NCBI GenBank assembly: GCA_032821775.1
Contig: JAVLRN010000006.1
Coordinates: 2,294,001 to 2,358,000, forward strand
Origin: Sanguinoderma infundibulare
Lineage: Eukaryota; Basidiomycota; Agaricomycetes; Polyporales; Polyporaceae
Length of the DNA: 64,000 nucleotides
Direction: 5' to 3'
Shown here: piece by piece, positions 8,925 through 50,621 of the stretch
Layout of the letters: every line of letters starts with the position of its first letter
Position numbering within the stretch: position 1 is the stretch's first letter
Position numbers and translations under genes: made by a program
The notes under the pieces: model-generated
What the model was told of the DNA's origin: nothing
Database searches by the model: none
The model's input: only the letters and a program-made list of their open reading frames with translations

Positions 8925-8936
8925 AGGAGCGGGCGG

Positions 8937-27458: not shown

Positions 27459-27549
27459 GGCAACATGGCCGAGCGGTCTAAGGCGCCAGAATCAGGTCAC
27501 ATGATCCATCTGGTCTTCACGGGCGTGGGTTCGAATCCCACTGTTGTCA
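27459..27549 (+). tRNA. tRNA-Leu (anticodon CAG) with an 11-nt intron
   Basis: Acceptor GGCAACA pairs with TGTTGTC (27542-27548), with A73 at 27549. The D-arm is GGCCGAGCGGTCTAAGGC; the anticodon stem CCAGA (27486-27490) pairs with TCTGG (27509-27513). Anticodon CAG is at 27493-27495. The bases 27497-27507 between positions 37 and 38 form the usual nuclear tRNA intron. A long variable arm of class II type and the T-arm GTGGGTTCGAATCCCAC follow. Confidence 0.93.
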
Positions 27550-29380: not shown

Positions 29381-29388
29381 GGGCAGGC
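29381..29388. repeat. 8-bp target duplication, left copy
   Basis: GGGCAGGC precedes the left inverted repeat and recurs at 49471-49478 after the right one. Confidence 0.9.
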
Positions 29389-29408
29389 AGGACCCCTGAC
29401 AATAGGTG
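29389..29408 (+). repeat. left terminal inverted repeat of outer element
   Basis: AGGACCCCTGACAATAGGTG, 20/20 match to the reverse complement of 49451-49470. It is followed by the TCCGGA-rich subterminal zone up to about 29590. Confidence 0.92.
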
Positions 29409-29830
29409 AGCCAGCCGGTTCCTCATTCCGGAAGTTTTTGGCCGATTTGGAGGCCCAATGCCAGATCATAATCCGGAAGTTTGGGGGAAAATCGGCCGTC
29501 AGGCCGGATAATTTTTCCGGACATTCAGAGCCCATTGGGCGGGAGCAGGATCAACAATCCGGACATGGTCGAGAGATCCGGACCGCCGACAGTCACGCGA
29601 CTGGCCGCCTGGAAAGGTTAAGCCATGAGGCTACCTGAGGCTACTGGGCAACGTTTGTCAGTTATTAAATGTATTAGCCCCAGGTTTCAGATTAATGGGG
29701 AGCTGTTAGCTGGTTAGTTACTGGCAATGTAGATTTCTGCACGTAGAATAAGATTAACAACCGAAATTCAATTTCCTCGAGGTCGTCTCCTCTGCGCGTG
29801 TGGTCGATGCAACAATCCAGTACTCGAAAT

Positions 29831-32800
29831 ATGGACGAACCATTCAGTATCGCCGACTCCGACAGTGAAGACGAGCTACTCTCTAGCTGGAGGCCATCCG
29901 ATTGGATTGGCCAGAACAAACGCTATGGATCCGATCCTCCTCCTATAGTCCTCGCCGCTCGACGCCAAGTACTCGCACTCCTCCCCGAAGACGAACCTCT
30001 CCTCCCTGAACCTCAGCTCTCCATTTCTGCCTTCTTGCGATTCGCGCTCCCGCCTCAACCATCCGCACTAGGGTTTGAGAAGGCCGAGACGGCGTTTAGC
30101 CGCGAACCGCCCACGGAATCGCTGCGTTCTGCCGATTTTCGACAGCGACCAATCCCGCCCATGGTATACGTGCGAAGCCTCGAGGCCGCCTTCGGTCAAG
30201 CCTGGTTTGATGGCACTCAATCAGTGATTGACTTCCGGTACACGAATTCCCGCCTGCCCCTGAACGTCATCACTTACTGGAGGGAAGTGGGAGACATGCG
30301 GGAGATGCAGAGGAAGTGGGCGGAGGCGGCCGCCTGGGCTACATCCTGGGCCGAGAAGCTGGATACGAGGGTTAGCAAGGACTTGGAGGGATACGAGGAC
30401 ACGGAAGTGGTGGAGTTGCGGAGGCGGTTGGACTCACTATCTTGGAGTGCCGACATTCGCGCTGTGGGTGCTTCCTCTGCCTCTTCCTTGCAGCTTGCGC
30501 GTTTGCTGTCGAATGAATGGTTGAATGACGAGCACGTCAACATGTTCATGGATGATCTTGACGTCCGAACGCCGTCGGAATCCACATCTTCCGTCGCAAA
30601 CCTGTGGTTCATTCACGCTGTACTTGCCGTCCACGACTGCGAGGGCTCGCGCGAGAACCCCGGGTCGGCTTTGCGGGCATATGAGTCCCGAGTGCGCGCT
30701 GGGACGCTCGGACGACTGTTCTTCCCTGTCAATATCAATTCGAATCACTGGGTCGCCTGTCTTGTGGATTTTGAGAAACAAACAATCAGCTGTGGTATGT
30801 CTCTACAATTGTCATATACGCGCCTGGAATGTTGATGTTATGCGCCATAGGCGACTCCCTGTCCAATAGCCCGAAAGCGTGTGCGGCTGCTTCGCGCATC
30901 CTTAAGGCGGTCGCTGCGTGGGTCAAAGCGGCATTCAAGATGACGTTTCGAATCGAGGGGAATACGCTTACACATGGGTTGCAGAAGGATGGTTTCTCTT
31001 GCGGTGTCTGTTGTGCAAATACGATCGCGCATCACCTCCTCGGCGAGCCGCTGTATGCCCACGATGACCGTGAGCGGCTCCGTCTGCAGTATTTCAAGAG
31101 TGTGGCGGATCGTTTGATTGCTGTATGTCTGTCAACGGTGATTAATTACGTACTATACTAACCCTTCCATAGACAACGAGGAATATCGAGCCTCCCTCAT
31201 CGTCCGATGCAAAGCCTCCGGCCACAGCACCAGTTCGGGCCATGCCCATGACCTCATCGAAACGAGAGCGCTCGCCCTCCGAAGACGCTACACCAACAGA
31301 CCGTCCGCCACCCAAAAAAGCCGTCGCATCACCCTCTCCTTCCCGGACAGCCACAGGAACAGCAGGAACGACTCCCGCTCTTCTACTCCTTCCTTCCGCG
31401 GTGGCTTCAGAGGCAAAACCCGAGACTGCACCAGTCGCGACGGACCTAGAAGCTTCTCTACCTACTGTGCTCGTGGTAGGGACCCTCGGATCGACGCGCA
31501 AATCCCAGAGCAGCATATTAGTAGACACCGAGTCCGAACTCGACACAGACTCCACGGACGACACATCCAATCCCGACAGTACCGCATCTGAGGCGAGGGG
31601 GACCATCCCAATCCGCAAAACGAAGCCCCGCGCTGCTCATCCAAACCTCTCCTCCAGGGTCAAGCCAGCCGGTGCCAAGGGAACATCTCGTTCGTCTACG
31701 GCAGCGCAGAAGCTCAAAGCCTCACGCGCGGATGGGTCTTTCGAGAGGAATACGAAACGAACACATACCTTTCTCGAGAAGCTCCATAAGCTTGATCCAC
31801 GGGCTGAGGTCGAGGATTTGGCGGATGGGAGTACTCGTATCTGGCACTCCCGGTGCGCGAAGTGGTTCAAGACCAAGGACGGCCGTCCATACAGCGTCGA
31901 CACGTTCAGGGCACATGTCGCGCGATGCAGCTCGACCACGGCGGTGGGGGTTTCAGGAGCGACGGTGCAGGTTAACACAGGCAAGACAATGACGATGACA
32001 AGCAGTGGGGACGGAGAGGTCGCAGATGAGAAGCCGAAGAATTCGAGAGGTACAAAGTCACGCAAGAGCGAGCCGCCTCCACAGAAGAACTCATTGCTGG
32101 GATGGGTGACGAAAGCGGGACATTCGACAACGTCACTCACGGAGAGGTCGCAGGAAGGTTCAGCCGGCCCGGACAAGCAGAGAGCTGTTGAGGACCAAGA
32201 GACCCCGCCGTCCACTGAGCGAACTGTAGTTGCCACCGACGGAGAAGAACTCACCAGCGATCATCTTCATCGACGAAATCGACTCCATGAGTCGACTCCG
32301 ACTCCACGGTCAGCCGATATCCAGCAAGTCTCCCAAGTCAAGGCCACGAGTACGTTAATGTCGTGGTCACAGAAGTTGGGGTGGTCGATGAAGTCGAAGG
32401 TGGACAGCGGGAACAATAAGGCAGCCGTCAAGCATCTGACTGTGGAACCGGAACAGGCGCCCATCCGGTTGGATGAGCGTCGGGTGCTCTCGTCCGCCAC
32501 ACGTCCACTCGTACCCTGCGGTGGCCTCACCGAGGCAATTGACCATCGTATTCCTATCTACCTACGTCAGGCACACACATCAGGAGCCGGTTCTGAGTCT
32601 CTTCAAAAGCTCGCAAAAAAGCTCTACGGCGTGGCGTACCGGACACTACCATCGAGGAAACGGGCCGCAATCGAGGTGGCACAGGTGCAGCATCGGAGGT
32701 GGAAGAACGACGTGTGGTCGAAGACAGTCTACTCTACAGGTTGCCTTTGTTTCATGCAGGTCGACGACGCAGACAAGCCGGCCGCATGCTCGGAGTGTCT

Positions 32801-34581
32801 GGCTCTTCGCGGCTTGCACGCATTCCAAGTGGCTCTCAACAAGGCGACGAAGAGGCAGCTCAATAAAATCAAGTATCAGCATCTGAACAAGAGGTATCAT
32901 AGCGAGACTTTGGCTGCACTGTTTGCGAGGTCTACTGGGCTATACGAGCTCGTAATGAACGAGGTAAGTGGTAAAGACAGTGTTTTTAATGGTTTATCCT
33001 CATCGCCGTAAACCCATAGAGTTCCGAGGCAAGCGCATACACCCGGCTGGCGGTCGGGCTCATAGAGGGCAAGCTGTCTGGCTACCCGATCGTCAGTGAC
33101 CTGCTCCAGGCTCTCGCTCAACAGCTGGACCGTGAGGAGCGTGGTGTTGGCCGGCAAAACTTCCGATACGGCCCCTCCCTCACCGAGTTCTCACATCTCG
33201 CCGCAATCATCAGTCCAGAGTTCTATCGCATACTCTCTAAACATCTCCCCCTGCCCACGATTCGACATCTCAAGCGGGTCCAAAATGCCGAGCCCGTGTT
33301 CCCGCTGACGGTGTGCGAGGAGACGTTCAGTAACGTCCGAAAATACTTGGACAAACTCGGGTACAGCGGACCCATTTCCTTGAGCTGCGACGACACGAAG
33401 CTACACAACGTGTATCGAACGTACTGGGACTCGAACGCGGAGGTTCACATGGTGGTTGGTGGAACTGGAGATCCGTTCGCCGTCGCGAACATCGAGGAAC
33501 TCGAAGCCTTCTTGGATAATCCTCATCAGCCGAAGGCCACCAAGGTATATTCTCACATTGTTCGCCTATTCGAAATGCATCTCATAGTTATTATTGCTTC
33601 AGATACGTCTTTGGTGTGCGCAAGTCCCGCTCCCCAAGATACCGCCCATTATCGTAGCTGCCAAAGCGATTCCCAACAGCCTCACAGTTAACCAGCTCCA
33701 CGACTTCTTCACGCCTATTCTCCATGGTCTACTTGCGCATGGGATCCACATTCATTCGTATGCTTGTGATGGCACGGAGACGGAGCGGTCGCTCCAGCGT
33801 CGTATCGTCGACCACGCCCCCTATCGAATCACTCACGCCGTCTCCCTCCCGTCTCTCCCTCCCCAGATACCACAAATTTCTGTCACCATCGCCGTATACG
33901 AAGGCCACGCGTTAGTCATGATCCAGGATGCGAAGCATGCCACGAAGACATATCGCAACAACTTGTTCTCCGGCGCTCGGCTCTTGGTCATTGGCAACTA
34001 CATTGCAAGCTACGAACATGCGCGATATCTCGCTTTCCTCGCTGACAGCCCCCTCTATCACCGTGATGTGGAAAATGTCGATCGCCAGGACGACAACGCT
34101 GCGACACGACTCTTCTCTCCCACTGCGCTCGAGTACCTCGTCCAACAGCTGCCTGAACAAGTGGGCCAGATCCTCTACACATTCAACATGGCTGAACTTG
34201 TGAGTGCATACCTCAATCCCGAGATCTACCACGTCGAACGCCTCAAGATGGCCTTCCAGACCTATTACTTTGTCAACACCTGGATCGCGTACCTCAAGGC
34301 TGCTCAATACCCTCCCACTCGTTATTTCATCTCGCACGAGGCTGCAGACATCACGCGCATACTCGTCGAAGGCCTTCTAGGATTGGTGGTTGTCTACCGT
34401 GACCACCTCAGTGACGCCGCCGCCACTCCCTTGCTTCCTTGGCTCCATTCAAGCGAGCCATGCGAGCATGTCTTCGGTGAGGCCCGCAAGCTGGTCAGCG
34501 ACTTCACTCATCTCGACTTCCTCTATATGATCCCTCACCTTCACGTCGTCCTCCGCACATTGATTGGATTCTCTCATACCA
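29831..34581 (+). pseudogene. Ulp1 protease - zinc finger - DDE-like transposase fusion, first part (disrupted)
   Basis: Exons 29831..30794, 30851..31122, 31173..32963, 33020..33544 and 33603..34581, all in phase, cover codons 1 to about 1510. A Ulp1/SENP-type C48 protease lies at about 240-410: WLNDEHVNMFM, catalytic His306 (NSNHW), Asp323 (CGDSL), Gln366 and Cys372 (LQKDGFSCG), spaced as in yeast Ulp1. A Ser/Thr/Pro-rich linker carries a Cys/His cluster (RIWHSRCAKW … FRAHVARC, about 636-668). The DDE-like part has Asp1133/1134 (SCDDTKLH), Asp1240 (ACDGTETE), Asp1293-xx-His1296 (IQDAKHATKTYRNN) and Glu1472 (SEPCEHVFGEAR), an order like P-element/THAP9 enzymes. The gene is cut at 34581 by the inner transposon. 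An ATG at 29807 is an alternative start. Confidence 0.82.
34575..34581. repeat. 7-bp target duplication of inner element, left copy
   Basis: CATACCA precedes the inner element and is repeated at 47261-47267. Keeping one copy preserves the outer gene's reading frame, which supports 7 bp rather than 8. Confidence 0.85.
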
Positions 34582-34735
34582 CACCAGTAGCTTCCATACT
34601 TGTAATACAAGTCCCCATAACTGTGGTAGGAGGGGGACTATTTTATGACCCGTCTGTAATTCACTTACAACTGGCCTAATTGTATTTCCTTCATTGTGTA
34701 TCGTCTCCTCACTTGTATATCTTATATACCTATGC
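34582..34735 (+). repeat. left terminal inverted repeat of KDZ element
   Basis: The first 96 bp match the right end (47165-47260) exactly. Differences start at 34678, with two more by 34735. The last codons of the interrupted outer gene frame run into it and stop at TAA 34677-34679. Confidence 0.9.
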
Positions 34736-35391
34736 TTGTACCAGCCCTGCCCACTTGTATATCCTTTATATGCGTACTTGTACCAGCCCCGCCCATTAGT
34801 ATATCCTCTAAATGTGTACTTGTACCAGCCCTGCCCATTTGTAAATCCTCTAAATGCGTACTTGTACCAGCCCCACCCATTAGTATATCCTCTAAATGCG
34901 TACTTGTACCAGCCCTGCCCATTTGTAAATCCTCTAAATGCGTACTTGTACCAGCCCCACCCATTAGTATATCCTCTAAATGCGTACTTGTACCAGCCCT
35001 GCCCATTTGTAAATCCTCTAAATGCGTACTTGTACCAGCCCTGCCCATTAGTATATCCTGCTTGTACCAGCCCTGCCCATTAGTATATCCTCTGAATGCG
35101 TACTTGTACCAGCCCCGCCCATTAGTATATCCTCTAAATGCGTACTTGTACCAGCCCAGCCCATTAGTATATCCTGCTTGTACCAGCCCCGCCCATTAGT
35201 ATATCCTCTGAATGCGTACTTGTACCAGCCCAGCCCATTTGTATATCCTCTAAATTTGTACTTGTACCAGCCCCGCCCATTAGTATATCCTCCATATGCG
35301 TACTTGTACCAGCCCTGCCCATTAGTATATTCCACTTGTACCACCCCCGCCTATTTGTATATGCTCCATATGCGCACTTGTACCTTAGTCA
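34733..35391. repeat. left 42-bp minisatellite array (16 units)
   Basis: Units start CTTGTACCAGCCCYGCCC and end near AAATGCGTA. Thirteen are 42 bp and three are shortened to 32 bp by loss of the last part. Because 42 is a multiple of three, long repetitive frames appear on both strands; I treat them as artefacts. Confidence 0.92.
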
Positions 35392-35745
35392 AATGGCCAG
35401 CAATATCAATAGCACACCTAACACGCAAGGGAACGTCACTATTGATCATTATTGCGAGATTACAAGAAACCACGTAAGCAATAGTGCAATAATATGAGTT
35501 AACGTGCTGGATTATATGCGACATCTATCTACAGGGATTAGGGCGTGGACGATACTGGGAATCAGATGAAGGAATGTGATGACCAAGCGAGAGAAATGCG
35601 ATAGTGGAGGGAACGCGCAGGGAACGAGTTGGCTTATGCGCGAATGAACAGTATGGAATTGACTTATACACAGCGTCTATGCGCCCGGCTTCTGCGTACG
35701 TCAGCCCTCCACCTCCTACCCGTCCTCCTCGAAGTTGTGGGTGGT

Positions 35746-38002
35746 CTACTTCAGCCCGGAACGATGGGTCTCGAGCACCGTGGAGATTGTCCAGTTGACA
35801 TCATCCACGGCATGCGCAAGGTCGGCAGGAGGCTCAGCTCCTACTTCAACCGCCGACGCCCAGATCGCGAGAGACATGACGACGACGAAGATTCCGTTAC
35901 ACCCCCCACGACGGATTGAATCCCATTCCAAGTCGTCCTCCGGGACTGTGCGCGGCAGCGGCCAGTTCTCTGCATTCTGGCGAACATTTGGCTGTAGCTT
36001 CCTCCACCAACTAATCCACCGTGAGCCAAAGGACTCAAGAGAATCCGGGCACGGGATCCGGTCGTAGTCGCGACCGTTGTTGATCCACCGTGCAACCTCC
36101 TCAGGCCGATGCTTCGCGCTGATACGCTTCTACGACGAGGGTCAGCGGACGTGAGATACACAACATGCAAGAGCCATCGAGACATACCTTGCCGTCAGGG
36201 TGTCCCATGGCGCATTCGAAAGCCTGCCAGTTCTTGAGCAGCTCCGACCACGTGTTCGTGATGCTGAGATTTTCGAGATGGGAGATGGCAGTCGTTATCC
36301 AAGGAGGTATGGCAGGAGCGCCGTTCAATGCAGTATTGCCGAGCTGGCGGAAGGCACCGTCCAAACCGGCGGCAGCCAGCGTGGCGCGATTCTTCTCGAT
36401 CGTCCTGCGCCGCTCGTCATCATAATTGGGCTCAGGAAGGGACATGGGGGTCGACCCTGGAGTAGAGGGAGGTGATGCAGAGGTTGAGCATAGAGATGTG
36501 GGCTTCAGACGTAACTCGCTACCAATGGGGGACGACTTACGAGTGCTCGTCGCCTCCGAGTGCTCATCCTCTGCAGCCCGCTCAAAACGCTTCCGCTCCT
36601 TCCTCTTCCGCGAATCCTCCACCTCTTCATCATCAGATGAGTGGGCTTCCGTTATGGCATCCTTCGACCCTTTGACCTTGTTGCGCTTCTGGTCCTTCTT
36701 CTTCTTCCTCTCCGTCTTGTCCTTGCCATGGTCCCGTTTGCGCTTCTTGCCGGGCGTCGAAAGCTCAGTGGTCTTGTCATTTTCGCTGGCAGAAAGAGAC
36801 GAGGGGGAAGCTGTTGGAGAAGCAGATGAACGAGGCTGTGGGTCGTTCGATGGACTGGGTTGGGGGGATGAGGCTTCGTTCATGAACGCGTCGTGTAACT
36901 TGCTCGCGGCATCGGCAGCTTGGTACATCGTCAGCGACTGTCACGATAATAACCGCATTATATGACGCTTACCATAACATGCCGTGATGAACTTGTCCCA
37001 AGCTTGGGAGACCGTCTTCCAGTGGGTCGTCGCATCCTCGAAGGTCTTGTTGAGCGTCAGAGTACGGCCGTTGTGAACGCTGTGAACGTGTGAACGCTGA
37101 GTCAACGATGAGCGCGGATTGGACAGCCCTCACATCAAGAACGTCATCTCGCCATCTTGAGGGTTCGGCCCGCCCAAGAACAGCGTCCCGTTCCAATTCG
37201 TGAGTTTCTTGATTGAGTCCAGAAGGTAACGGGCTGTGTCGGGGAGCTGGTTGATCCGGCTTGGACACAAGGTAAGCACATACTGGCAACGCCGGCGGTG
37301 GTTCGGAAGCTTACTGTTGTAACAGCTCCGCTCGTTCATGGGATGTCGCAGCGTCGCAGTCCCCGGATTCAAGCTTCCTCAGGAACTCATCAAGAGATTC
37401 CTCGCCCTTTGCGATCATATCGCGGTACTCTTCGACCTCCTCCTTGACGCTCTCTGTCTCACCCTCTAGCATCTCCTTCGACTTCGCGATCACGAACGAC
37501 CACCAATGCTTCTTCTTCTCGCCAGGCGGCAAGGATGCGGAGTACTCGTCGTACTGTTCGTGCAGCAGGGGCATAATCTTCTCAGTGTACAAGGTAAGAT
37601 ACGCCTGGTATGGTTGGGGCGGCCGAGCCTTCTTCATTGTGAGCGACAAGATTGACTTCTTGCTTTTCGTAGTCTCCTCCCCGCTCCGCCGGTTCCAAAA
37701 CCACCAATAGATTTGCTGGCATGATGAACGTAAGTATCGGATGATCAGTCACACGTTGCCGTACTAACCTTGTGTCGCAAGCCTTTCATATGCTGACGGG
37801 TCTTCTCCTCGTCTCCGTTGAACTTATTGAGCACCTTCTGTGTCGGGTTCTCAAAGCCGTCGGGAAACTTGTCAGACCAGTCCTGATACGTGCCGCTCAA
37901 CCACGGAGTCAATTGGTTTTCTGTGCAAGCCTTTCGGAAGTCGTCGAGCCGGCCAGTTAACCACTCAAACTGGTCTTTGGAGGTCCAACGTTTGCGAGGC
38001 AT
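35746..38002 (-). CDS. KDZ-element accessory protein, 7 exons
   Basis: Exons complement(35746..36129, 36188..36456, 36541..36918, 36973..37079, 37134..37259, 37315..37715, 37769..38002) join in phase to 632 residues with no internal stop. The N-terminus MPRKRWTSKDQFEWLTGRLD is a short helical, possibly DNA-binding module of the kind I recall beside KDZ transposases in Agaricomycetes. It is followed by WWFWNRRS, a lysine-rich nuclear-signal-like stretch (GKKRKRDHGKDKTERKKKKD) and a Trp-rich C-terminal part (RWISWWRKLQPN). No enzyme motif is seen. It may be a transposition accessory factor; that is inference from position. It is intact, unlike its neighbours. Confidence 0.7.
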
Positions 38003-38322
38003 GGAGGGAAGATGTGAAGGGGAGGAGGAAGCGGTCGGGTGGGGCGTGGAAGGTGACCACGTCAGAGGTCGGGCGGAAGGCCTGGAAAAGACTCAAAGGT
38101 ATTGTCTAGGGCTTCGTAGCCAGACATCGTTTTCCACGCTTCTGCACGCCTGATTCGTAAACATAAAGTTGACTGAGCTTCCAGCATGCAATTCAGGGTC
38201 GCCCTGCCACCCGCCGCCCTCCCAGACTCCCCAAAGTCTCTCGTCTGTCACCCAGTGCCGTGCATTTGACAGGAGGAGGTCCGTGCGCCATTAATCCCTT
38301 GATCTCTTTGTGAGCTAACGTT

Positions 38323-39115
38323 ATGCTCCGTTCATCTGTAGCTCTTACACAGTCATCGCCGTTCATCGACCCCACCACGTCGGACGAGGAGCAAGCGGTC
38401 GACTCCCCTCCCTATCTCACGCCACCCTCTTCTCCCGATCCTGTCGAGTCTATCACCGCGGCTCCAACAATTATGGCTCCGCCGCCGCCAGTGTTCCAGT
38501 TCACCGTAAACACGACCACTGTCCACGATGAATCACAGGCAGCCTAACGGTGCTCAGCCCCCGTATCCGCCAACCCCCACTCGCGCTCATCTTGCTGCTA
38601 TCGCGGACATCCCTGTGGCATCGCTTCGGAACTTGGTTCTCTCCGATGCGCCTCGGAGTCCCCGGCGCCACTGCCTGTTCATGATTGCGCTGACAAGCCG
38701 GCTGTTCCAGCTCATGCTCGGCGGCCCCGCCCCCCAGTGACTCCTGAAGGGAAGGCAGAGCTCGTCCACTGATCGCGACGACACTCGAGGAGATGAAACG
38801 GGAGGAGGCTGAGAAGAAGGCTGCCGCCAAAGCGGCCCCGACGTCCTCGTCCACAGACGCTGACAAGGCGCCTGCGGAGGACAAGGTCGACCCTTCGAGT
38901 ATGTATTCCCGCCCCTTCTACACCTTTATGTCAGCGAATCCGATAGCGCGTATAGAAGAATACATCGCTCCGCCCGATCCGAACCACTGCAAGAAGCGGT
39001 TTGTGGTCTCTCTGGTACCAAGGTCGGCGTATTCAAGCATTGGTCGGAAGTGCAGCGCTACACGTCAGAAAAGTCCGGCTCGTTGCAGGAGGGGATGCGA
39101 TCTCGCACGGCGTGG
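38323..39115 (+). pseudogene. decayed gene with a viroplasmin/RNase H1 N-terminal-like motif
   Basis: An ATG at 38323 opens a Pro/Ser-rich frame that stops at 38547. Further frames (38528-38740, 38793-39000) carry Ala/Lys-rich sequence and NHCKKRFVV. After a frame change near 39015, GTKVGVFKHWSEVQRYTSEK follows, ending in a stop at about 39115. The block VGVF..W.EVQ...S.KSG resembles the small RNase H1 N-terminal (viroplasmin-type) domain that binds RNA-DNA hybrids. At least one frameshift makes it non-functional as read; unseen introns could explain part of it. Confidence 0.45.
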
Positions 39116-39220
39116 GATGAAGGTCATTGAAGACTAGTTTGCCGGGCGCCCTGGTATTGTTTTGAGATATTGACAATTTGGTGTAACGTCCGTGGGTCCT
39201 TACATAGTACACGTACACTT

Positions 39221-39500
39221 CCGCCTCGTCGGTTGTCGATCAAAGGCAGAGACTTCTCGGATTACCAATTCGTGCTCAAGGGTCACGAATGCTTGCGACA
39301 GGACGACCGTGTCATGCAGCTGTTCGGCCCGTCAATACCCTAGTGCCTGGACAAGGACTGCTTCAAGAGGCGTCTGCACATTCAACGGTTCCCCGTGATC
39401 CCGCTTACGCCGAACGCCGGTCATACGCTCGCTCGCTCGCTCCCCGTCAACAGCATGATCGGCTATATCCTCGGTCTGGGCGATCGCCACCCGTCCAACC
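39221..39500 (+). pseudogene. captured fragment of a TOR-type PI3-kinase-related kinase
   Basis: The frame reads [12 protein letters not shown], then [20 protein letters not shown], a TAG stop, then FKRRLHIQRFPVIPLTPNAG and finally NSMIGYILGLGDRHPSN. These match the N-lobe and catalytic-loop (GDRHPSN) motifs of TOR kinases. About 100 residues normally between PNAG and the loop are missing, as is everything after HPSN including the DFG motif. It is therefore a dead, internally deleted piece of a host gene carried inside the KDZ element. Confidence 0.8.
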
Positions 39501-40445
39501 CACGGCATACGTCCAAAGGACAGAAACGAGTCCCATGCCAAAAATAGTGCTTAGGCACTGGCAGACCCCCTTATAGGAGCCGAGCTCGAATGGAGAGAGA
39601 GAGATCCGATGTTATAGTAGCGTTCAGGCCGGTTACGGCGTATGTGGCTACTTTCCGGGAGTGTACGGAGTGACGACACCTGTATGGAGCTGGAAGGGGA
39701 CGTGTTGTTTGCTCGTGACGTCTAGACGACTACACGTGATGCGCGAATTTTAAAGGGCCGATTTTTCGCCCCGGATGGATCATGACTACGTCCAGCCTAC
39801 GGCTCAACAACACGGTCAAGGTATTGACACCGGCAACTACATCGAGGCATGCGTCTGTTGTTGCGAGATTTGTTCGCTGATGGGAGTTCTGTTCGGTCGG
39901 CATGCATCTGAGAGAGATTTCCCCAGACTGATTCCGATCCGATTGAGCGGATCAAGGGAGACCCCCGAGACACGTACGAGATCAGCCTCGATCCAGATAC
40001 GCGCTCAAGCGCCTCCGCTTAGTGTCCCGTTTTAGGACTGGCCCGACGTGCCCTCCCATTGACTGTACCGCTCAGCGCCCTTGCTCAGCGTCGCGACCCG
40101 CCTATCAGTTGGTCCAATCACACCCGGAGCACGCCGCAGCGTGCTCCTTCCGTGTTTGCGAGCCGTTAAATATGTAGCTATCTCCTAACAGCACGGACGG
40201 AAAAGGTCGTCTATGAGTGTAGACGGAAAAAAGAAAGAATCATGACGCGGCGACGGGACGTGGATGGCGGTGAGCGGACGGGTGAGAGAATGACGGGAGG
40301 CGGGCTAACAAGAGGGGAAGTGCGGCGCCTTCACCGTTCATGAGCCATGAGCAGCTCGACAATGTCCTCGTGCCCAGGTTTGCTCCCTTCATCCTACCCG
40401 TGAATGAGTTCCACTTCCATTGTTGTGGACATCTGACGGCGGAAC

Positions 40446-40722
40446 GCGATGTGCGCTCTTTTTGCGCCTGGTCCTGTACTATACTTAGGGTTGGTGCCGT
40501 CGTCATACTATAAGGACGATCTCCCGTTTCGAGCTCGCCGTGTGGGCCGAGGACGTCGAGATGCCATGTCCGGTCTTCTTGCGCCTGGTTCTGTTCTAAG
40601 CTTGTGGTCGAAGGCGACTTCAGGCGCAGGATCCCATGCAAGAGCCGAGGGACCACCACGGCGCTTTACACGCAGGTTCCACCCATGCGGTGCATACAAG
40701 AGCACCTCGTGCGCACGCAGTA
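40446..40722. repeat. direct repeat, copy 1
   Basis: Matches 40784-41085 closely over stretches such as GACGATCTCCCGTTTCGAGC and CTTGTGGTCGAAGGCGACTT. Copy 2 has small insertions, for example near 40990 and 41035. The two lie almost in tandem, 61 bp apart. Confidence 0.8.
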
Positions 40723-40783
40723 CGCTGTGGTGTGTTGAGTTCGTCGAAGACAAGCTATACTACACGGACGAGCTCGGCTTCCT

Positions 40784-41085
40784 GCGATGTCCGCTCTTCT
40801 TGCGCCTAGTCCTGTGCTATACTTAGGGTTGTGCCATCGTCCGACATACTATATGGACGATCTCCCGTTTCGAGCTCGCCGTGTAAGCCGAGGACGTCGA
40901 GATACCATGTCCGGTCTTCTTGTGCCTGGTTCTGTTCTTCTAAGCTTGTGGTCGAAGGCGACTTCAGGCGCAGGATCCCGTGCGACGGTAGCAGAGAGCC
41001 GAGGGACCACCACGGCGATTTGCGCGCAGGTTCCGCCGCGCCAGCCCATGCGGTGCATACAAGAGCACCTCGTGCGCACGCGGTC
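40784..41085. repeat. direct repeat, copy 2
   Basis: Second copy of the 40446-40722 unit, same orientation, with several substitutions and short insertions. Confidence 0.8.
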
Positions 41086-41572
41086 CGGTTCCACTGTTCC
41101 GGCAGAATGCTCTGTCTGCTCTGCTTGTTGGTTCCATATCGGCCCTCCCATTCCAAGTTCATGGTCCAGTCATCGTCATGCTATGTACTCACGGACGTGC
41201 TTCGGTTGCGCTTCTCGGTCTGGACACAGCTGCAGCCAGAATGACTATTGTACCCACACTTTCTCCGCATGGTTACATCAAACTTACTTCAATCTTCCTC
41301 GACGGAGGCGGGCTCCGCCTAGCATTACAAAGCTTCATATCTTCCAAATTTGGAAGATAGATATGTCTCAAATGAAAATGGGCACACCAACCAAAAAAGG
41401 GCAATCATGGAAGTTTTTATGTATAAAAGGCCCCTCGCTGCCGTTCGGTCGAATTTGCCCCAGCCGCCATCCCCTTGTTCTCATCCCCTCGAACATCGGT
41501 ACGCATCAGATCGCTCCCCGTCCCCTAGCGGTGCTGACGTTGGCTATGGCCCCTGTTCGACCCTTTCCATAG

Positions 41573-42118
41573 ATGTCAACTAAGTATGCTCCCCCTCCTC
41601 GCTCATCCGAGTCCGACGCTGGCACCGGGGGGCGCTCGCGCGCCACCAGCGCTGGCTCCCAGGCCGCCGGACCTGGCTCCCGCTCTGCCCCCGCCTCCAT
41701 CCAAGGTCGCCCCCCGTCCGTTGCAGCCTCCGACGTCCGTGACTGGGACTCGGATATCCACATGCGTACCGCTAGTAAGCAACTGTCCATATCTGTTGAA
41801 CGTCCTACTGACATCTATTGTGGTTTAGGCGTAGCCTCCGAAGACTTGAACTCGATCGGCACCCGCCTCGAGTCCTTGTCGACCTCCGTTGACTCGCAGA
41901 CCACCGCGATCGCTTCGTTGGAAACCCAGATGAAGTCGCAGATGACGTCGCAGACCGCCGCGATCAACTCGTTGGAAGCTCAGGGAAGGTTGCAGACTGA
42001 CGCAATCAACGCCCTCGGTGTGAACGTCACGTCCGCCATTAGCCGGATGGAGACCTCGTCCTCGACCTTGCGGGACGCCATCCTCCAGCTGATCAACGCG
42101 AGCGGACGGCAGGAGTAG
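41573..42118 (+). CDS. small coiled-coil protein in KDZ element
   Basis: The 181-codon frame starts MSTKYAPPPRSSESD. The C-terminal half is a heptad-like coiled coil built from near-repeats (TAIASLETQ, AAINSLEAQ, DAINALGVN). A likely 54-bp intron (41775-41828: GTAAGC … CTGAC … TTTAG) is a multiple of three and would leave 163 residues. A promoter-like gap separates it from the KDZ transposase 370 bp downstream. Its function is unknown; a partner or multimerisation role for the transposase is only a guess. Confidence 0.5.
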   Translation: MSTKYAPPPRSSESDAGTGGRSRATSAGSQAAGPGSRSAPASIQGRPPSVAASDVRDWDSDIHMRTASKQLSISVERPTDIYCGLGVASEDLNSIGTRLESLSTSVDSQTTAIASLETQMKSQMTSQTAAINSLEAQGRLQTDAINALGVNVTSAISRMETSSSTLRDAILQLINASGRQE

Positions 42119-42486
42119 GGTGGTCGGTGAGTCTCTGTTTTCACGTCTCATTTTCCAAGCCTTACGTTTGTTAACAGGAATGTGATCGTCGCGAGCCTGT
42201 AGTCATCAACGTCATCGTCGACGACGAGCATCATCTTCCGCATCTCGCTTGTATTTGTATCGTGTACGATGTACTGTGGAGTTTATGGGAATGGATCGCA
42301 ATCGTTATCGTCCCCTCATCGTCATGATGTGTGATAAGTGTGCTTAATGAATCAAGCGACGACGGAGTGGGCGGGAGCAGAAAGAGTTGAGGAAGAGATA
42401 ATATTTGGGCGCTCTACTTGAGCGCCTCTGACGTGGCTCTTCGTTTTCCTTAAGCCCCTTCGTTCACTTGCTGCCACCAACTCCTT

Positions 42487-45400
42487 ATGTCTAAGAAGCG
42501 ACCTGGCGAGAACTCACCTCGCACCCCTGCAAAGAGCAAGAAGCCAAAATTCAAGGTCATCCCCAGAGAATGTGACTCGGACGTCGGGCCAGCAAATACG
42601 GTCTCCAGGCACGTCACCCACATTTCTGCCTCCGCGCCGAGCAAGGGAAAGCTCAGGATTAAAACCAAGCAGAGGACGGTTCACCTCAGTCCCGAGGACA
42701 TCCTTTCCGATGCGGCACTTGACCCAACTATCGCTGCCACCGTCGACTCGATTGTCGGAGAATTCCCTCCCGAACTGGCGGAGCATCTGACGGAGGAACT
42801 TCCACAAAGTAAGAAGCGTGAGCGTGTTGCGCAACGGGCCGCTGTACGTTTCGTTTTTATGCATAGTGAATGATCTAACTGTTATGTATCTAGAGCAAGG
42901 TTCGGGAGTGGCTTCCTTTGAGGCAAACTATGGCCGATGAACTGATGCTTTACGAGGGGTGCGAGGAGGATGTGGAGAAGACTGTACTGTGCCGCCAATG
43001 CCTCATCAACGAAGCGTCTGTGCGATGCATCGAATGCGAGGGGAGGTCTCTTGTATGCGCAGCCTGTGCTGTCGCGGGGCATTCGAGGTTGCCCTTGCAT
43101 CGTGTACAGGTGAGTTTCCATTTCCTGTTGTTCGCGCCGTAGTTGAGGTTATTCCGTGTCAGAGATGGAATGGAAAGACCTTTGTGAAAAGTTCCCTTCA
43201 CGAGCACGGTCTGATCGTCCAACTTGGCCACAACGGCGCGGAGTGCCCTTGCCCCTCCGCTAGTTCTCGGCGTCTCGTCGTTGTGGACCTTACAGGCACC
43301 CACGAAGTAGATGTCTTATTCTGCGAGTGCCTCGACCCAGAAACCCGCAGGTTTCAGCACGAATGGGTCCAAGTGTTCCGTCGAGGGTGGTTTCCGGCAA
43401 CGACGAACAGACCTGCGACAGCATTCACCTTCCGCGTGCTCGAGACCTATCACGAGCTCAACTTCCAGTCGAAGGTCAGCCTCAATGACTACTGCCGAAC
43501 CCTTGAGCGTGTCACTGACAACTCTGGGTTGGGACCCGTCTTGGTATGCTCGTTTACCTTCGAACCTCCTTCGTCTCTGATCAAACACCCAGAACCGCTA
43601 TCATCAGTTCTCTCACGTCATGCAGCTGTGGCGCCATCTGACCATGGTCAAACGGGGTGGTCGTATCCACGACCCGGCTGGTGTCGCGGGGACACAACCT
43701 GGGGAGCTCGCTGTCGAATGCCCCGCATGTCCTCATCCGGGAAGGAACCTGCCGGAGGACTGGGACAAGGCCCCGCCTGAGATACGGTAAGTCCATACTA
43801 TGTATCGTATCACTTGTACGCGCGATCTGATGATGTCCAACAAGATGGCTTTATACGCTGTTCCTGATGCTAGACGCCAACTTTCGAGCAAAGTGCAAAG
43901 CTCGAAACTTTGACGACTTTGAGCTGGGATCGGGGTGGAGCTATTTCGTTGAAGAGAGCGCATATCAAGCGCATATTGCTAAGTATGGCGACCAGCAGGA
44001 AGTACGTTGCAGACATTACATTTGCGCGTTCTTTGTTGCTAATGTCGGAAGCAGGAGAACCATTGCTCTGCTGAGCATAGCGCCATCGTGAACGCTAATC
44101 TTCGTCGCGAAGGTTATGTGGCATCCGGCGTTGGTGCGGTTTTATGTGCCCGTCATGCACTCGTCCGTCGGAACGGGGCGGGAGATACCCAGAAGGGGGA
44201 AAAGTAAGCAAATCTGTCCACGTTTGTCGCAAATGTCTGCTGATCAAAGCAGATACGCTAACATGGATTACCTCTTGTTTTCCACCTTGACGGGGGTCGT
44301 CATCCTCATCTTGCTCATCTCTTATGATATCGTCTGTCAGTGGTATAGGAACCTCTTCGCGCGAATGCTTGGATTCCCGCGCGAAATGCACCTCGACCTT
44401 GACAAGGTCACACTACGTTTCGCCATCCCGAAGAAACACTTCCGCGTTCACGGGCCCAAGCACTCACAATTCTCTTTCAACTTCCTTCGATGGGTCGCTC
44501 GTACATACGGGGAGGGCATTGAGTCCCACTGGTCCCACATGAACCCATTGGCCCTCAGCACCCGGGAGATGAGTCCCGGCCTTCAGCACGAGGTCTTCAA
44601 TGACCACTGGGGTGCGTGGAATTGGCAGAAAATCATCGCCTTCGGTAAGTACATTACGTTAGGCTGTTGGCGCGTGTCACTGATATATCGAACAGCGCCG
44701 TTCTTCCTCAAGTCCCTCCATGAAGCCAAGACCATGCATGCTAAACAGTTCAAGACATTCGAGCAATTCAACAAGACGTTCGACGCCGGGGTTGTAGGGC
44801 AGTGGGAACGTCGCGTTCAGGAGTGGGAGGCAGATATGTCGAACCCCGATCCGTATGAGGAACCAATAACGAGTGCGTATCTACATTCGGAAGACACGTC
44901 GGCTACGTTCTCAACGTTTCCATCACAGATATGTCTCAAGCAGCCATACGGCGCCAGATCGCAACCGAGGAAGCGGCGGAGAACGCCGCCTAGACGCTAC
45001 TGGGGCACGAGACAACGCCCGGTGTGTTCCTTCAAGTGGGACTTGAGCTCGAGGAGCAGCAGTAAGTGCTGGAAATCCTACATTGTGTGCGCATGTTATT
45101 GATGTTCTAATATGCAGACGTGCCATGAGCATGGTGAAGACGACTTCCAATTCCGATAAATCGGCCGCCCAGATCCAGGAAAAGCAGACGCTCCTCAGCC
45201 GCCGCATCGCCTCATGGCAGTCCATCCAGGACTGCCACATGCCCATGGTTTCCACGCTCCGCGTCACTGCCTCACACGTACCCGCTCCAGATCCCCCATC
45301 CTCGTCCTCGCCTGCACAAACAAGAGTGAAGGACGTGCAACTCTGGCTGCCTTCTGCCCTACCTGCTTCTCTTCTTGCACTAGACTCAATGGCCTCTCTG

Positions 45401-46222
45401 CGCGACAAAGAGCGGCGACTGCGACTTGCTCAGCTCTCCGACTGCTTGGATGACATCCGCCGGTTACGCCGCGTCCTGACCGGCATCACTGACTTCAAGC
45501 GCTTCAATGTCTTGGGGACCGGCCAGCGCGCCAACACTCGCATCCGCACGCTTTATTCACATTTCGACGCCAAGATCCAGCGGTGCATTCTTCGCTACCG
45601 TGCATCTCACGCCGCGATGAACAACCTTGACCCTTCTGGTGATTGGTCATCCCGCTTCAAGGTACTCAATGACGGCGACATCACAGGACCCGGGCGCGAT
45701 GAAGATGAAAGTGAAGGCCGAGTCGTGGTGAGCTGGATCTGGCTTTCTCCTGGCGGTGCCAAATCTTCCGATCCCATGCGCCCATCCACGCTGGCTGAGT
45801 TTGCAGATAGTATGCGCATTGAGTGGGCTCGGTGTAAAGCTCGGGCGGAGCGGTGGGGAGAGGAGGAGGAGTTGCTGGAAGAGGAGATGCGCCGGGTTAT
45901 TGAATTCTTCGAGGACCGGGCAAAGTGGTGGCGTAGCCAGGGTAATCGCCGTTCGGACATCTCCCCAGCGTTACGTCTTGCGCTTTCGATTTACGCCGAG
46001 AAGCAGGCGTCGGTATTCGAGGGCTTGCGCCTACGCTGTGGCTCGCTTTGGGCACTGTACTTCAAGACTTACGGCTCGCTCCCGGCGTGGGCAACGCCAT
46101 TTGATCATGCTGATGCTGCACCTTCTCGTGTCCATGTCATGAGGGCACGCATTAGCCAGCTTGACGAGGACGTGGGGGGTTCATGTTCGGCATCAGTGTC
46201 GTCTGACAGCGAGGATGTGTAG
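42487..46222 (+). pseudogene. KDZ transposase with CxC2 zinc cluster, one in-frame stop
   Basis: Exons join(42487..42843, 42894..43109, 43163..43543, 43593..43786, 43845..44001, 44055..44203, 44253..44644, 44696..44872, 44929..45061, 45118..46222) give a 1,086-codon frame. A Cys/His B-box-like cluster (CRQCLINEASVRCIEC … CAACAVAGH, about residues 135-165) precedes a CxC2 domain (ECPCPSAS, FCECLD, RRGWFPATTNRPATAFTF). The KDZ catalytic region has NMD490, SYD510IVCQW, IPKKHFRVHG and GE572GIESHW, the expected acids of a DDE core. A TAG at 44991-44993 (codon 696) ends translation after the core; sequence then reads on in frame for 390 codons. The mutation looks recent. Confidence 0.88.
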
Positions 46223-46394
46223 TTTGTTGTTTGTTATCTGTATCCCTGTATATTAGAGTTGTTTTGGCAATAATTCCATAAGCGATGTGAAAGCGTGTCT
46301 CATAAACTCACTCAAGTAATCGACAGATGGATTGATGCCTTATAAGGCTGCATTATGAATGACTTATAATAATAATGCTCATCATTCACAAGTG

Positions 46395-47110
46395 GACAGG
46401 GCTGGTACAAGTACACATTCAAAGGATATACCAATGGGCGGGGCTGGTACAAGCTGGATTTACAAATGGGCGAGGCTGGTACAAGTACGCATTCAGAGGA
46501 TATACTAATGGGCGGGGCTGGTACAAGCGGGATATACTAATGGACGGGGCTGGTACAAGCGGGATATACTAATGGGCAGGGCTGGTACAAGTACGCATTT
46601 AAAGGATATACTAATGGACGGGGCTGGTACAAGCGGGATATACTAATGGGCTGGGCTGGTACAAATACGCATTTAGAGGATTTACAAATGGGCAGGGCTG
46701 GTACAAGCAGGATATACTAATGGGCTGGGCTGGTACAAGTACGCATTTAGAGGATTTACAAATGGGCAGGGCTGGTACAAGTACGCATTTAGAGGATATA
46801 CTAATGGGCGGGGCTGGTACAAGCGGGATATACTAATGGGCTGGGCTGGTACAAGTACGTATTTAGATGATATACAAATGGGCTGGGCTGGTACAAGTAC
46901 ACATTTAGAGGATTTACAAATGGGCAGGGCTGGTACAAGTACACATTCAGAGGATATACTAATGGGCGGGGCTGGTACAAGTACATATTTAGACAATATA
47001 CAAATGGGCCGGGCCGGTACAAGTACGCATATAGAGGATATACTAATGGGCAGGGCTGGTACAAGCACGCATATAAAGGATATACAAGTGGGCAGGGCTG
47101 GTACAAGCAT
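46395..47110. repeat. right 42-bp minisatellite array (about 19 units)
   Basis: Units ATGGGCNGGGCTGGTACAAG … ATATACTA are the reverse complement of the left array and include several 32-bp short units. Frames through it are artefacts of the 42-bp period. Confidence 0.92.
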
Positions 47111-47260
47111 AGGTATATAAGATACACAAGTGAGGAGATGATACACAATGAAGGAAATACAATCAGGCCAGTTGTAAGTGAATTACAGACGGGTCATAAA
47201 ATAGTCCCCCTCCTACCACAGTTATGGGGACTTGTATTACAAGTATGGAAGCTACTGGTG
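47111..47260 (-). repeat. right terminal inverted repeat of KDZ element
   Basis: Reverse complement of the left end, ending …GGAAGCTACTGGTG at 47260, followed by the CATACCA duplication (47261-47267). Confidence 0.9.
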
Positions 47261-47267
47261 CATACCA

Positions 47268-49155
47268 CTGATCCAAAGGCGACTGCTGCTGGTTATGAGC
47301 ACGGATACTTCCTACCTGAACGCGTCGACCTCGCCAAGCTGGCTCTCTACTCCACTAATTCCGAAATTCAGCAGGCGGCGCAAGATGCCTGGGACGAGAA
47401 CGAATCAATGTTCACTCTGACTGGTGTTGCTCCCTCAGACTTCCTCAGTGCCTCGGGAGTGTCGACTCGACTCCCGAGCATTGCGTCATGGTGCCTTCCC
47501 CCCGAAGCTGATGCTGCGCCGGGGGCCCCTGTTTTCCTGAATCTACTCGCCCCGGACGACTCTTGCTCTGAGATATCCTCGGGTGATGAGCCCGACGAGG
47601 AAGACGTCTCCGCTGAGCTCGAGGAACTCATCCAGGCGCATGAGCTAGTGTGGCAAGGCGGCACTGATGCTGAAGACCAGAAATTCCTCAATTTGACTTG
47701 TGCCGCTGTTGCGCTTGCAATGGACGACTCAGTAAATGCGTATGTGCTATTTGATGCATCCTATTCGAATTAACAGATATCTAACCACCCATCAGACATT
47801 CCCATCCAGATGCCCCCGACCCACAGACCATTGCGGCGCAGCTAGCTGAAGAACGCCAGATGGTAAAGGACGCTTTCTTCCATGCCGTCCGTCAACTTCA
47901 AGACCAGCTGCCAGCCGAACGTGCCCGCCCTTTCGAACGCCCCCTCCGCATTGCCGATCACATCGACTTCTCACCTCTCATCCATGAGCGACGCCGCCAT
48001 GAGACACCGCGCGAAGCTCGTTGTGTGCGCGTCAGCAAAACCCAGACCCCACCCAATGCCCTGGACCCGAGCGTCACTGAGAAAGCCAACATCGCGCGCA
48101 AATCACACCGCCGCCAACTACAACACGACATGACTTTCTTAGTGCACCGGCGTCAGCAAAACAAAGGTGTCGGCTCTGGCGCTCCTCGAAAAAAACGGTG
48201 GACGGAAGGCGCGAGCACCAACCCAACCGGGCTCAGCGGAAACACCGCTAATGCCGTTCTTACAGCCGGACAACGAGCTTCTACGGTACGTTTCACGAGC
48301 TTGTACGATGTTCGACCTCGAAGCGAATGGCACACCTGTTAAAAAGGCGGATGGGTCGTCTCCTGTCCCTCACAACTTGCCCACATACCACACGCTCACC
48401 ATGTCTCCTATCCCCCGTTGCGCGATCGTTGTCGATGTCGCTGGCGACCATCTGGCTAACCTTAGATCTTATAGGTGATTATGCGCCGACTGAGGACGTT
48501 CACCGCATGCAAACTGCCTGCACCCGGAGAGCTCGCTGATGGCGTCGTGGGCCAGCCTACTGCCGACACACCATCTCATTGGCCTCTCCAGAAGGGGGAG
48601 TATTGTATCGTCTATTCCGAAGATCGAGTGATGCTTGCGCGCGGTGAGTACATTCTATTTTCCGGCGCACGCCGTCTAATGACTGCCGCTGTAGTCCTTG
48701 AGGTCAAATGCGCTGATGGCGCGAAGAACGCCAAGCATTCGTGGGTGCCGAATGCTGCCAACATTGGACTGGTTTCGTACATTTCCGTCCAATTGTATGA
48801 GCACATTCCGAGGGCGGGCCAACCAAGCGCGCACTTCCGCGCGGTTTTACGCCGGGTGCTGCACCTGGGAACAGTCAGTTACTCTCACATCTCGGCTGAC
48901 TGTTTTTTGCGGCGGCTTTCAGGCGAACAGCAGTTGGTCCGTGAGGGTCGCGAGCTGTTTTTGGATGATCAGAGCACTCAGATATTCGAGACGTACAAAA
49001 GATGCCAAACGCAGGTCGCAACCGCAGTCAAAGCTTTGAAAAAGGCTCGCAAAGACGCTAACCAGCGGAAGCAGAAGAATACGAGTGATACAGGTTCGAA
49101 GAGGAGGAAGGGAGGCGACGCGGCTACTTCTGGCTCTGAGGTGGACGAGAGTTGA
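47268..49155 (+). pseudogene. outer-element fusion gene, second part (after KDZ insertion)
   Basis: Provisional exons are 47268..47739, 47796..48285, 48475..48643 and 48695..49155. Joined to the first part with one CATACCA kept, the frame runs through (…GFSHT | TDPKATAAGYEHGYFLPERV) and the phase-2 intron at 47740 fits exactly. The total is 2,040 residues. The region holds an acidic stretch (SSGDEPDEEDVSAELEE), a block EYCIVYSEDRVMLARG plus VLEVKCADG, and a basic tail (KRRKGGD). No known fold is recognised. The 189-bp interval 48286-48474 may hide an exon, so that part is uncertain. Confidence 0.7.
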
Positions 49156-49450
49156 AGTACTACGTATATATTATCATTTGTATGCAAGTACAAAGCAGTC
49201 TGGACGGGAAACCGCGCACATATGCTCCCCCGCGACATATCCTGGGCTATCCGGAAGAAAAGTGGCGTTTCCGAACCTGGATCGAGCGATCCGGAAATTT
49301 CAGACCGGCCGCCAGGCCGGTTCGAAAATCCGGAATTTTAGCCCCCGGAGGGGGCGAACCTGGGTCAAAATCCGGACATTCCGAGTGAAAAATGGCCCAA
49401 AAAATCCGGAACTTTTGGGTCGCGCTTCGCGCGACCGGATCCGGGTTCCC

Positions 49451-49470
49451 CACCTATTGTCAGGGGTCCT
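49451..49470 (-). repeat. right terminal inverted repeat of outer element
   Basis: Exact reverse complement of 29389-29408, preceded by a TCCGGA-rich zone from about 49240 and followed by the GGGCAGGC duplication at 49471-49478. Confidence 0.92.
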
Positions 49471-49571
49471 GGGCAGGCGCGCCATGGTTGTCGGGCTGTC
49501 GGCGGCGCACAGGTGTACTAGGCTCGTTCCCATTGGTTGGTATTCAAACTCCGGTCGAAATCTCCCTCGTG

Positions 49572-50621
49572 CTTCCCAACCGGCTGGTACAACTGGTGGG
49601 GGTCATGGCTGTACGTCCCAATATGGACCCCGTGTGAAAACGTACTTAGAAAAATCGCGAGTTGGCCCTCCAGAGAATCCTCAGCTGTACTCGAACACAG
49701 AGGAAATCCCTGTTACAAATTATCACATTAGACATTCATCACATGCCTGTGACCCTTAGCTTTGTTTATATGCAGCTGTGTATCTGAATACGAGCCATAC
49801 GCGCTGTTCGGGCGTGCTCGCCATCCAAAGCCAAAGACGCCCGGTTGATGTCAGCGCTTCCGCATGCCGCTAGGCGCTCACCTGGAACCCGCTTGCATAC
49901 ATGATGTATGTTACGCTCGGAGCGCAGGTCCTGCGAGTTCTACCCCTGTTATATGCTTATAGATGTTATAGGAGAACATTTTAATTTGTGAGAGGTCTGT
50001 TTCCCTCTCCGCATTTTGCATAATGACGTGGCCAATGGCACATGCACAGAACCAAGTTGACGTCAGAGCGGCTTGGACTCGGCACTCTTGCTGAAATAAC
50101 CATGCGCTGACACATGTCAAACACTTCTACACATAGTTTCTTCCCTGGTTGATTCCATTCTCATGTGTTTGAGCCTTTGTAGCCCACGCATTGCTTGTCC
50201 ATAGCCTGATTGACCTATATAGGAGTTGAAATTTCAGCTTGGTTAGATAGTTTGCATCAAAATGAGGCATTTATGTGACACTTGAGGTTGACTACACCCT
50301 GCTCTGTAAGTTTCACATTTTGCTGTGGCATTGTTAGTCCACAACCACGGGTTTTGCGCACATTGAGCCTGATTTATCAGCAAAACTCAGATCCTAGAGC
50401 CACTGGTTGCATAAATCCACCATTTTCGACACCACTGTGATTTATATAGGCATTATACATCGTTTTTTTGAGTTTTGGTGGGAGAGAGCGGAGGCAATTG
50501 GTCTGTATTGTCAATTGTTCTGCGGGGCGGAAGTGCGATTTCACTAAGTACGTTTTCACACGGGGTCCATATTGGGACGTACAGCCAGGACCCCCACCAG
50601 TTTTACCAGTCGTTAGGGAAG
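49572..50621. repeat. fold-back element with 85-bp inverted arms
   Basis: The left arm (about 49572-49659) and right arm (about 50536-50621) are imperfect inverted copies sharing TACGTCCCAATATGGACCCC and CGTGTGAAAACGTACTTAG. The roughly 880 bp between them are AT-rich with no gene. No target duplication was found, so it may be a MITE-like element or a remnant. Confidence 0.7.

What the first reader, a model, noticed from the sequence alone, without database searches (positions are those of the whole stretch)
29389..49470. Undescribed DNA transposon family with perfect 20-bp ends and an 8-bp target duplication
The ends AGGACCCCTGACAATAGGTG match exactly over 20 bp, the flanks are a perfect GGGCAGGC duplication, and both subterminal zones carry clusters of TCCGGA. 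Its single gene is not KDZ, copia, hAT or Plavaka as I know them. Structural proof of transposition is strong although the family is not recognised.
Basis: partly seen in the sequence, partly recalled or inferred. Interest (0 to 1): 0.92.

Follow-up and report, generated by a model that had tools for sequence, protein, structure and literature searches.

The report
P-element-like mushroom transposon with protease
A fungal jumping gene that looks like a distant relative of the fruit fly's P element, fused to a probable SUMO-cutting protease, sits here split in two by a second jumping element; relatives occur in many mushroom genomes.

Summary
In detail: exact 20-bp inverted ends at 29389/49470, exact GGGCAGGC duplication, ten TCCGGA in the two ends. 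It is a mobile family.

Verdict: a real cut-and-paste transposon, now broken, of a P-superfamily-related lineage carrying its own Ulp1-type protease. New variant of a known kind.

The parts
29381..29388 (.). left 8-bp target duplication GGGCAGGC
49471..49478 (.). right 8-bp target duplication GGGCAGGC
29389..29408 (+). left terminal inverted repeat of the outer element
49451..49470 (-). right terminal inverted repeat of the outer element
29427..29582 (.). left subterminal array: 5 TCCGGA (CCGRAA motif, either strand, about 40, 85 and 127 bp from the end)
49250..49410 (.). right subterminal array: 5 TCCGGA
29831..30794 (+). exon 1 (ATG; first part of the Ulp1/C48 protease, H306 of the active site)
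   Evidence: ORF and splice model; Pfam C48 4.7e-6; motif positions
30851..31122 (+). exon 2 (rest of the Ulp1 protease: D323, Q366, C372)
31173..32963 (+). exon 3: two conserved Cys/His modules, predicted folded within disordered sequence (HxxC...HxxxC near residues 637-664 of the protein; four Cys between about 861 and 954); zinc binding inferred
33020..33544 (+). exon 4: helical stretch and first catalytic Asp motif LSCDD
33603..34581 (+). exon 5 up to the nested insertion: YACDG, QD.KH...RNN, DRQDD, EPCEHVFGE motifs
34575..34581 (.). 7-bp duplication CATACCA, left of the nested element
34582..47260 (+). nested Kyakuja-like KDZ transposon, 12,679 bp, CACC...GGTG ends, not part of the outer element
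34582..35362 (+). left long inverted repeat of the nested element (87% to the right arm; tandem units, mainly 42 bp)
46532..47260 (-). right long inverted repeat of the nested element
42941..43777 (+). nested element: ORF with CxC2 cysteine cluster
   Evidence: PF18803 7.2e-37
44092..45099 (+). nested element: ORF with KDZ transposase domain
   Evidence: PF18758 5.3e-31
47261..47267 (.). 7-bp duplication CATACCA, right of the nested element
47268..47739 (+). outer gene continues (rest of exon 5)
47796..48285 (+). outer gene, exon 6
48475..49155 (+). outer gene, last exon (the preceding 189-nt intron is the least certain one)

Best explanation
The outer element (7,396 bp without the nested insert) is a cut-and-paste DNA transposon whose transposase is a distant relative of P element transposase, fused at its N-terminus to an Ulp1-type protease. 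Shown here: inverted ends, 8-bp target duplications, internally deleted non-autonomous copies, an unoccupied site, acidic DDE-type residues and an Ulp1 active-site set conserved in the homologs aligned, and a P-element-like predicted core in a homolog. Inferred: the transposase binds the phased CCGRAA motifs near the ends through its Cys/His modules and helix-turn-helix region, pairs the ends, cuts them with the DDE active site and joins them to a target with an 8-bp stagger. The protease probably acts in cis, removing SUMO from the transposase or from host silencing or repair proteins at the site. This copy can no longer make an intact transposase because a Kyakuja-like KDZ element jumped into the gene some 38 codons past the proposed catalytic Glu.
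Against: Sequence alone does not join it to P element transposase in the PDB: profile searches (25 homologs to E 1; 8 homologs to E 10) listed none; PF12017 hits 6 of 25 members and PF21787 one at 0.048; the window's own ORFs hit neither at E 0.1. No THAP domain was listed in any of 25 homologs. The ends differ from those of Drosophila P (recalled). The C14 copy has no matching flank duplication, and the C5 duplication lies in a short repetitive stretch (GGCGAGGCGAGGC). The window site's joined flanks gave no empty site. Which of D326/D327 and E657/E660 is catalytic is inferred from motif order. GTP use, DNA binding and protease activity are untested. Only three loci with transposase sequence were found in this genome: this interrupted one, C8 with three in-frame stops in the stretch matching exon 5, and C14 with two, both in the first 30 residues of the match, so present activity is not shown. 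Copies within a subfamily are related, so the motif spacing rests on two lineages.
Confidence: 0.87

Rival explanations
1. The whole 20-kb interval is one large KDZ transposon with AGGACC ends, and its KDZ gene moves it.
For: It contains a KDZ domain and CxC2 cluster; Zisupton and a Dileera KDZ element make 8-bp duplications (PMC12730594, passages).
Against: The KDZ part has its own ends, its own 7-bp duplication and five other two-ended copies of like length in the genome, while AGGACC-ended copies of 537-769 bp on C9, C12 and C5 are too short to hold it and the C8 copy (6629 bp) carries the outer gene's relative.
Confidence: 0.01
2. The outer element is a hAT or Mutator-like element: both commonly make 8-bp (hAT) or 8-11-bp (Mutator) duplications (recalled), and some Mutator and Ginger elements carry Ulp1.
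Confidence: 0.04
3. It is a separate DDE superfamily, neither P nor any named one, that shares the RNase H plus helical insertion layout with P by deep descent or convergence.
For: Only about 16% identity in the structural alignment, no sequence hit to P transposase in the PDB, different ends, no THAP listed, extra Ulp1 and Cys/His modules.
Against: 391 residues of a 442-residue P chain align at 3.4 A, well above all other DDE folds listed; PF12017 in 6 of 25; a relative is encoded in Melampsora larici-populina, a species from which Repbase P elements with 8-bp duplications were deposited.
Confidence: 0.12

Closest known systems
P superfamily (Drosophila P element, PDB 6p5a/6pe2; THAP9)
   Same: Predicted fold of the catalytic core with helical insertion, DDE order, HTH profile before the RNase H domain in some members, 8-bp duplications, internally deleted copies (PMC7776569 passages)
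   Different: Fused Ulp1 protease, other Cys/His modules and no THAP listed, protein of about 2057 residues instead of some 750 (P length recalled), AGGACC ends, phased CCGRAA arrays
Repbase P elements of rust fungi (P-1_PSt, P-1_MLP, P-2_MLP, P-N1_MLP, P-N2_MLP; PMC3164196, passage)
   Same: Basidiomycete P-type elements, the Melampsora ones with 8-bp duplications; the Melampsora protein P0209 is homologous to this family's core (E 8.4e-45 from P0113, 27% identity over 68% of the query)
   Different: P0209 (1025 aa, database gene model) has no Ulp1 match in Pfam; whether P0209 is one of the Repbase elements was not testable, their sequences are not held here
Ulp1-carrying Mutator and Ginger1 transposons (PMC2836005, passages)
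   Same: An Ulp1 domain encoded in a DDE transposon (in Ginger1 within the transposase)
   Different: Other transposase superfamilies; in Ginger1 the protease is C-terminal, here N-terminal
Kyakuja (KDZ) transposons (PMC12730594, section 3.2 read), for the nested element only
   Same: KDZ domain, CA..TG ends, 7-bp duplications
   Different: The two Laccaria Kyakuja families described have no terminal inverted repeats; this one has arms of roughly 730-780 bp built of tandem units; no TET/JBP family hit in the 12 inner ORFs scanned

Membership tests
P superfamily (outer element) | RNase H-like DDE catalytic core with a helical insertion domain of the P type | tested here: met
P superfamily (outer element) | Catalytic DDE residues | tested here: met
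   D326 63/63, D432 62/63, E660 59/63 with 4 gaps; motifs present in the window protein. Their catalytic role is inferred.
P superfamily (outer element) | P-type helix-turn-helix before the RNase H domain (PF12017) | tested here: inconclusive
   6 of 25 homologs at E up to 0.05, best 7e-8, about 80 residues before the DD motif in the four checked; not hit in the window ORFs
P superfamily (outer element) | 8-bp target site duplication | tested here: met
   6 of 7 two-ended copies exact, all different; single copy in the empty site
P superfamily (outer element) | THAP domain (typical of animal P/THAP9; the review says THAP is not found in fungi, so not taken as defining here) | tested here: not met
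   No THAP family listed for 25 homologs at E up to 0.05; PMC7776569 passage
P superfamily (outer element) | GTP as cofactor | not testable with these tools
   Needs biochemistry
Ulp1/C48 SUMO protease (N-terminal domain) | C48 profile and His-Asp-Gln-Cys active site | tested here: met
   C48 in 18 of 25 homologs, 1euv 2.2e-13, window ORF 4.7e-6, H 25/25 D 21/25 Q 25/25 C 25/25. Activity and SUMO specificity not tested.
hAT (outer element) | hAT transposase domain | tested here: inconclusive
KDZ/Kyakuja (outer element) | KDZ transposase domain in the outer gene | tested here: not met
   KDZ hit lies only in the nested 34582-47260; no KDZ family listed for 25 homologs of the outer gene
Kyakuja (nested element) | KDZ domain with CxC cluster; CA..TG ends; 7-bp duplication | tested here: met
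   PF18758 and PF18803; CACC..GGTG ends and CATACCA; 7-bp duplication exact in 5 of 6 copies. No tree made, so Kyakuja rather than another KDZ branch rests on ends and duplication length.

The most novel reading that the evidence does not exclude
An ancient, Agaricomycete-wide branch of the P superfamily has built a SUMO protease and its own zinc modules into a single large transposase, so that the element cuts SUMO from its own transpososome or from host silencing proteins as it moves: a P-type transposon that brings its own anti-silencing or repair-steering enzyme in cis. Its ends show phased motif arrays (about 42, 86 and 121-127 bp from the 5' end in two subfamilies) that would set the number of bound modules.
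Probability: 0.45. Interest if true: 0.7.

Novelty: new variant of a known kind. Interest (0 to 1): 0.55.

Why it matters
It gives a structure-based identity, a gene model and proven mobility to a large set of mushroom proteins that the databases list as hypothetical or 'Ubiquitin-like protease family profile domain' proteins, a few labelled methionine-tRNA ligase. It adds a mushroom lineage to the P-type elements reported from animals and rusts. And because a conserved protease active site sits in the same protein as the transposase, the question of why so many DNA transposons carry SUMO or ubiquitin proteases becomes directly testable in one gene.

Tried and rejected
Rejected: one 20-kb element (nested KDZ has its own ends, duplications and copies); hAT or Mutator.

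Papers: ten searches (one returned nothing) showed in the rows listed none on Ulp1-fused P-type elements of Agaricomycetes. Seen of papers: PMC12730594 outline, abstract, passages and section 3.2; passages only of PMC9674265, PMC8230255, PMC7776569, PMC10051438, PMC2836005 and PMC3164196; the rest only as search listings. PMC10051438 describes an Agaricus transposon with 9-bp duplications, no link found.

Selections: of 157, 186 and 116 homologs reported were listed, and each search scored only about 7,990 candidates. The 25 members of A1, 63 of A2 and 55 homologs of A4 were chosen by hand from the first 120; the 8 of A3 because they are short.
Full report
Observation. Of 1099 inverted 20-mer pairs in the window (1072 of them inside the nested element) only this one has an 8-bp flanking duplication. 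TCCGGA: 10 in the last 250 bp of both ends together, 10 in the remaining 63.5 kb.

Nested element. Repeat search showed long inverted arms at about 34582-35384 and 46388-47260 made of tandem units, mainly 42 bp. Its ends are CACC..GGTG with CATACCA on both sides. ORFs inside hit CxC2 (7.2e-37) and KDZ (5.3e-31) in Pfam. The 21-bp end occurs six times on each strand in the genome without mismatch, as six pairs 12.7-13.0 kb apart; the reversed-pattern control (up to 3 mismatches) gave 0 and 1. The 7-bp duplication is exact in 5 of 6 copies and 6 of 7 letters in the sixth. KDZ domain, CA..TG ends and 7-bp duplications are what Kojima gives for Kyakuja (PMC12730594, section 3.2 read), except that the two Laccaria Kyakuja families described there have no terminal inverted repeats.

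Outer gene. A splice model with short introns gives exons 29831-30794, 30851-31122, 31173-32963, 33020-33544, 33603-34581 | 47268-47739, 47796-48285, 48475-49155, about 2057 codons, with the frame continuous on the two sides of the nested element. There is no transcript evidence, and the last intron is the least certain. The N-terminal part is an Ulp1/C48 protease: Pfam 4.7e-6 in the window ORF, 18 of 25 homologs, yeast Ulp1 at 2.2e-13 by profile. His, Asp, Gln and Cys of the active site are kept in 25, 21, 25 and 25 of 25 aligned homologs and in the window protein. Exon 3 holds two modules predicted with good confidence inside disordered sequence (model mean pLDDT 62.4, most 10-residue blocks of the modules 85-97), with conserved HxxC..HxxxC and four-Cys patterns; that they bind zinc and DNA is inferred.

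Mobility. In the same 48.9-Mb genome (87 contigs, unnamed) the 20-bp end is found at two places as an exact pair and at two more as a single one-mismatch end; with up to 3 mismatches that is 6 matches against 6 for the reversed control, so the single ends are carried by the 120-173 bp of flanking similarity, not by the pattern. The C9 copy is 769 bp, an internal deletion derivative, 92% identical to the window element on its right part and 75% on its left, with GTCGCACA on both sides. The distant relatives on C8 and C14 (about 30% protein identity) led to a second subfamily: C8:1199382-1206010, 36-bp ends with one mismatch, CAAGGCCC. The pattern AGGACCCCCRAATA then gave 10 sites and none with the reversed control: besides C8, C12 565 bp ATCATGAC, C12 5979 bp CGTCCGCC, C5 537 bp GGCGAGGC (in a short repetitive stretch, its left end one C short of the pattern), C14 21.9 kb without matching flanks, and one lone end on C2. 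So 6 of 7 two-ended copies have exact and different 8-bp duplications. The joined C9 flanks with one GTCGCACA match C13:74742-75040 from end to end, 283 of 300 with one gap away from the site: an unoccupied paralogous site. The window site gave none.

Ends. CCGRAA, on either strand, occurs at about 40-44, 85-87 and 116-127 bp from the 5' end in both subfamilies (the C8 copy lacks the first and third), and at 165-174 in subfamily B, where A has a TCCGGA at 170 in the C9 copy. Further, unphased sites are present in most copies. Counts at the 5' ends are 4-7 per 260 bp against single-base shuffle means of 0.25-0.36 and a window background of 0.2 (max 2 in 165 windows). At the 3' ends the excess is clear in subfamily A (4 and 4) and weak in B (1, 3, 2, 1, 1). 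I read this as a transposase binding array; copies within a subfamily are not independent.

How it works. Best supported: cut-and-paste by a P-type DDE transposase that binds subterminal arrays, with an 8-bp stagger (mobility shown; chemistry inferred from fold and residues). The fused Ulp1 most likely takes SUMO off the transposase or nearby host proteins (inferred; the Ginger authors suggested that Ulp1 and OTU domains act in transposition, for example by steering repair, PMC2836005 passages). This copy is interrupted; of the other two transposase loci found, C8 has three in-frame stops in the exon-5 stretch and C14 two near its start, where an intron cannot be excluded. So no clearly intact copy was found in this assembly, while database gene models of 1,500-2,000 residues are many.

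Novelty. P elements in fungi are not new: rusts have Repbase entries, the Melampsora ones with 8-bp duplications (PMC3164196, passage). What I did not find in ten paper searches is an Ulp1-fused P-type lineage of Agaricomycetes. Repbase could not be searched. Hence: new variant of a known kind. On rechecking, the confidence in the best explanation was lowered from 0.88 to 0.87 because the stops in the C14 relative are less telling than first written and the fold rests on a homolog.

Noticed in passing
window 34582-47260: The nested KDZ element has inverted repeats of roughly 730-780 bp built of tandem units (mainly 42 bp) and six two-ended copies in the genome; the two Laccaria Kyakuja families described in the paper section read have no terminal inverted repeats.
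   Followed up: partly
G000:C12:1575016-1580994 (L020): A copy with the transposon's ends and a perfect 8-bp duplication carries three overlapping or adjoining open frames (498, 613, 347 aa) in place of the transposase, without Pfam match; the last looks by eye like a tyrosine recombinase N-terminus (recalled, not tested). Nested element or captured cargo.
   Followed up: partly
G000:C14:484083-505982: 21.9-kb two-ended copy, broken up by long stretches absent from the C8 copy, whose flanks show no 8-bp duplication.
   Followed up: partly
window 49518 onward: A dispersed repeat starts some 40 bp right of the outer element's duplication (eight other places at 89-100% over about 110 bp), with an opposite-strand piece near 50565-50621.
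   Followed up: no
homologs P0100, P0114, P0118, P0153, P0174, P0200, P0090: Six family members carry names such as MARS2, methionyl-tRNA aminoacylation or mitochondrial methionine-tRNA ligase, and P0090 has a Pfam tRNA-synt_1g match; perhaps a mis-joined gene model copied between annotations, or insertion next to that gene.
   Followed up: no
window 7473-10655: Copia-like retrotransposon: integrase core (7473-8921) and RVT_2 reverse transcriptase (8925-10655).
   Followed up: no
window 12874-14979 (-), 11530-12696 (+), 53247-54350 (-): Open frames with HET (heterokaryon incompatibility) and BTB domains.
   Followed up: no
window 27459-27549 (+): A tRNA match (Rfam, 48.1 bits), about 1.8 kb left of the element.
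   Followed up: no
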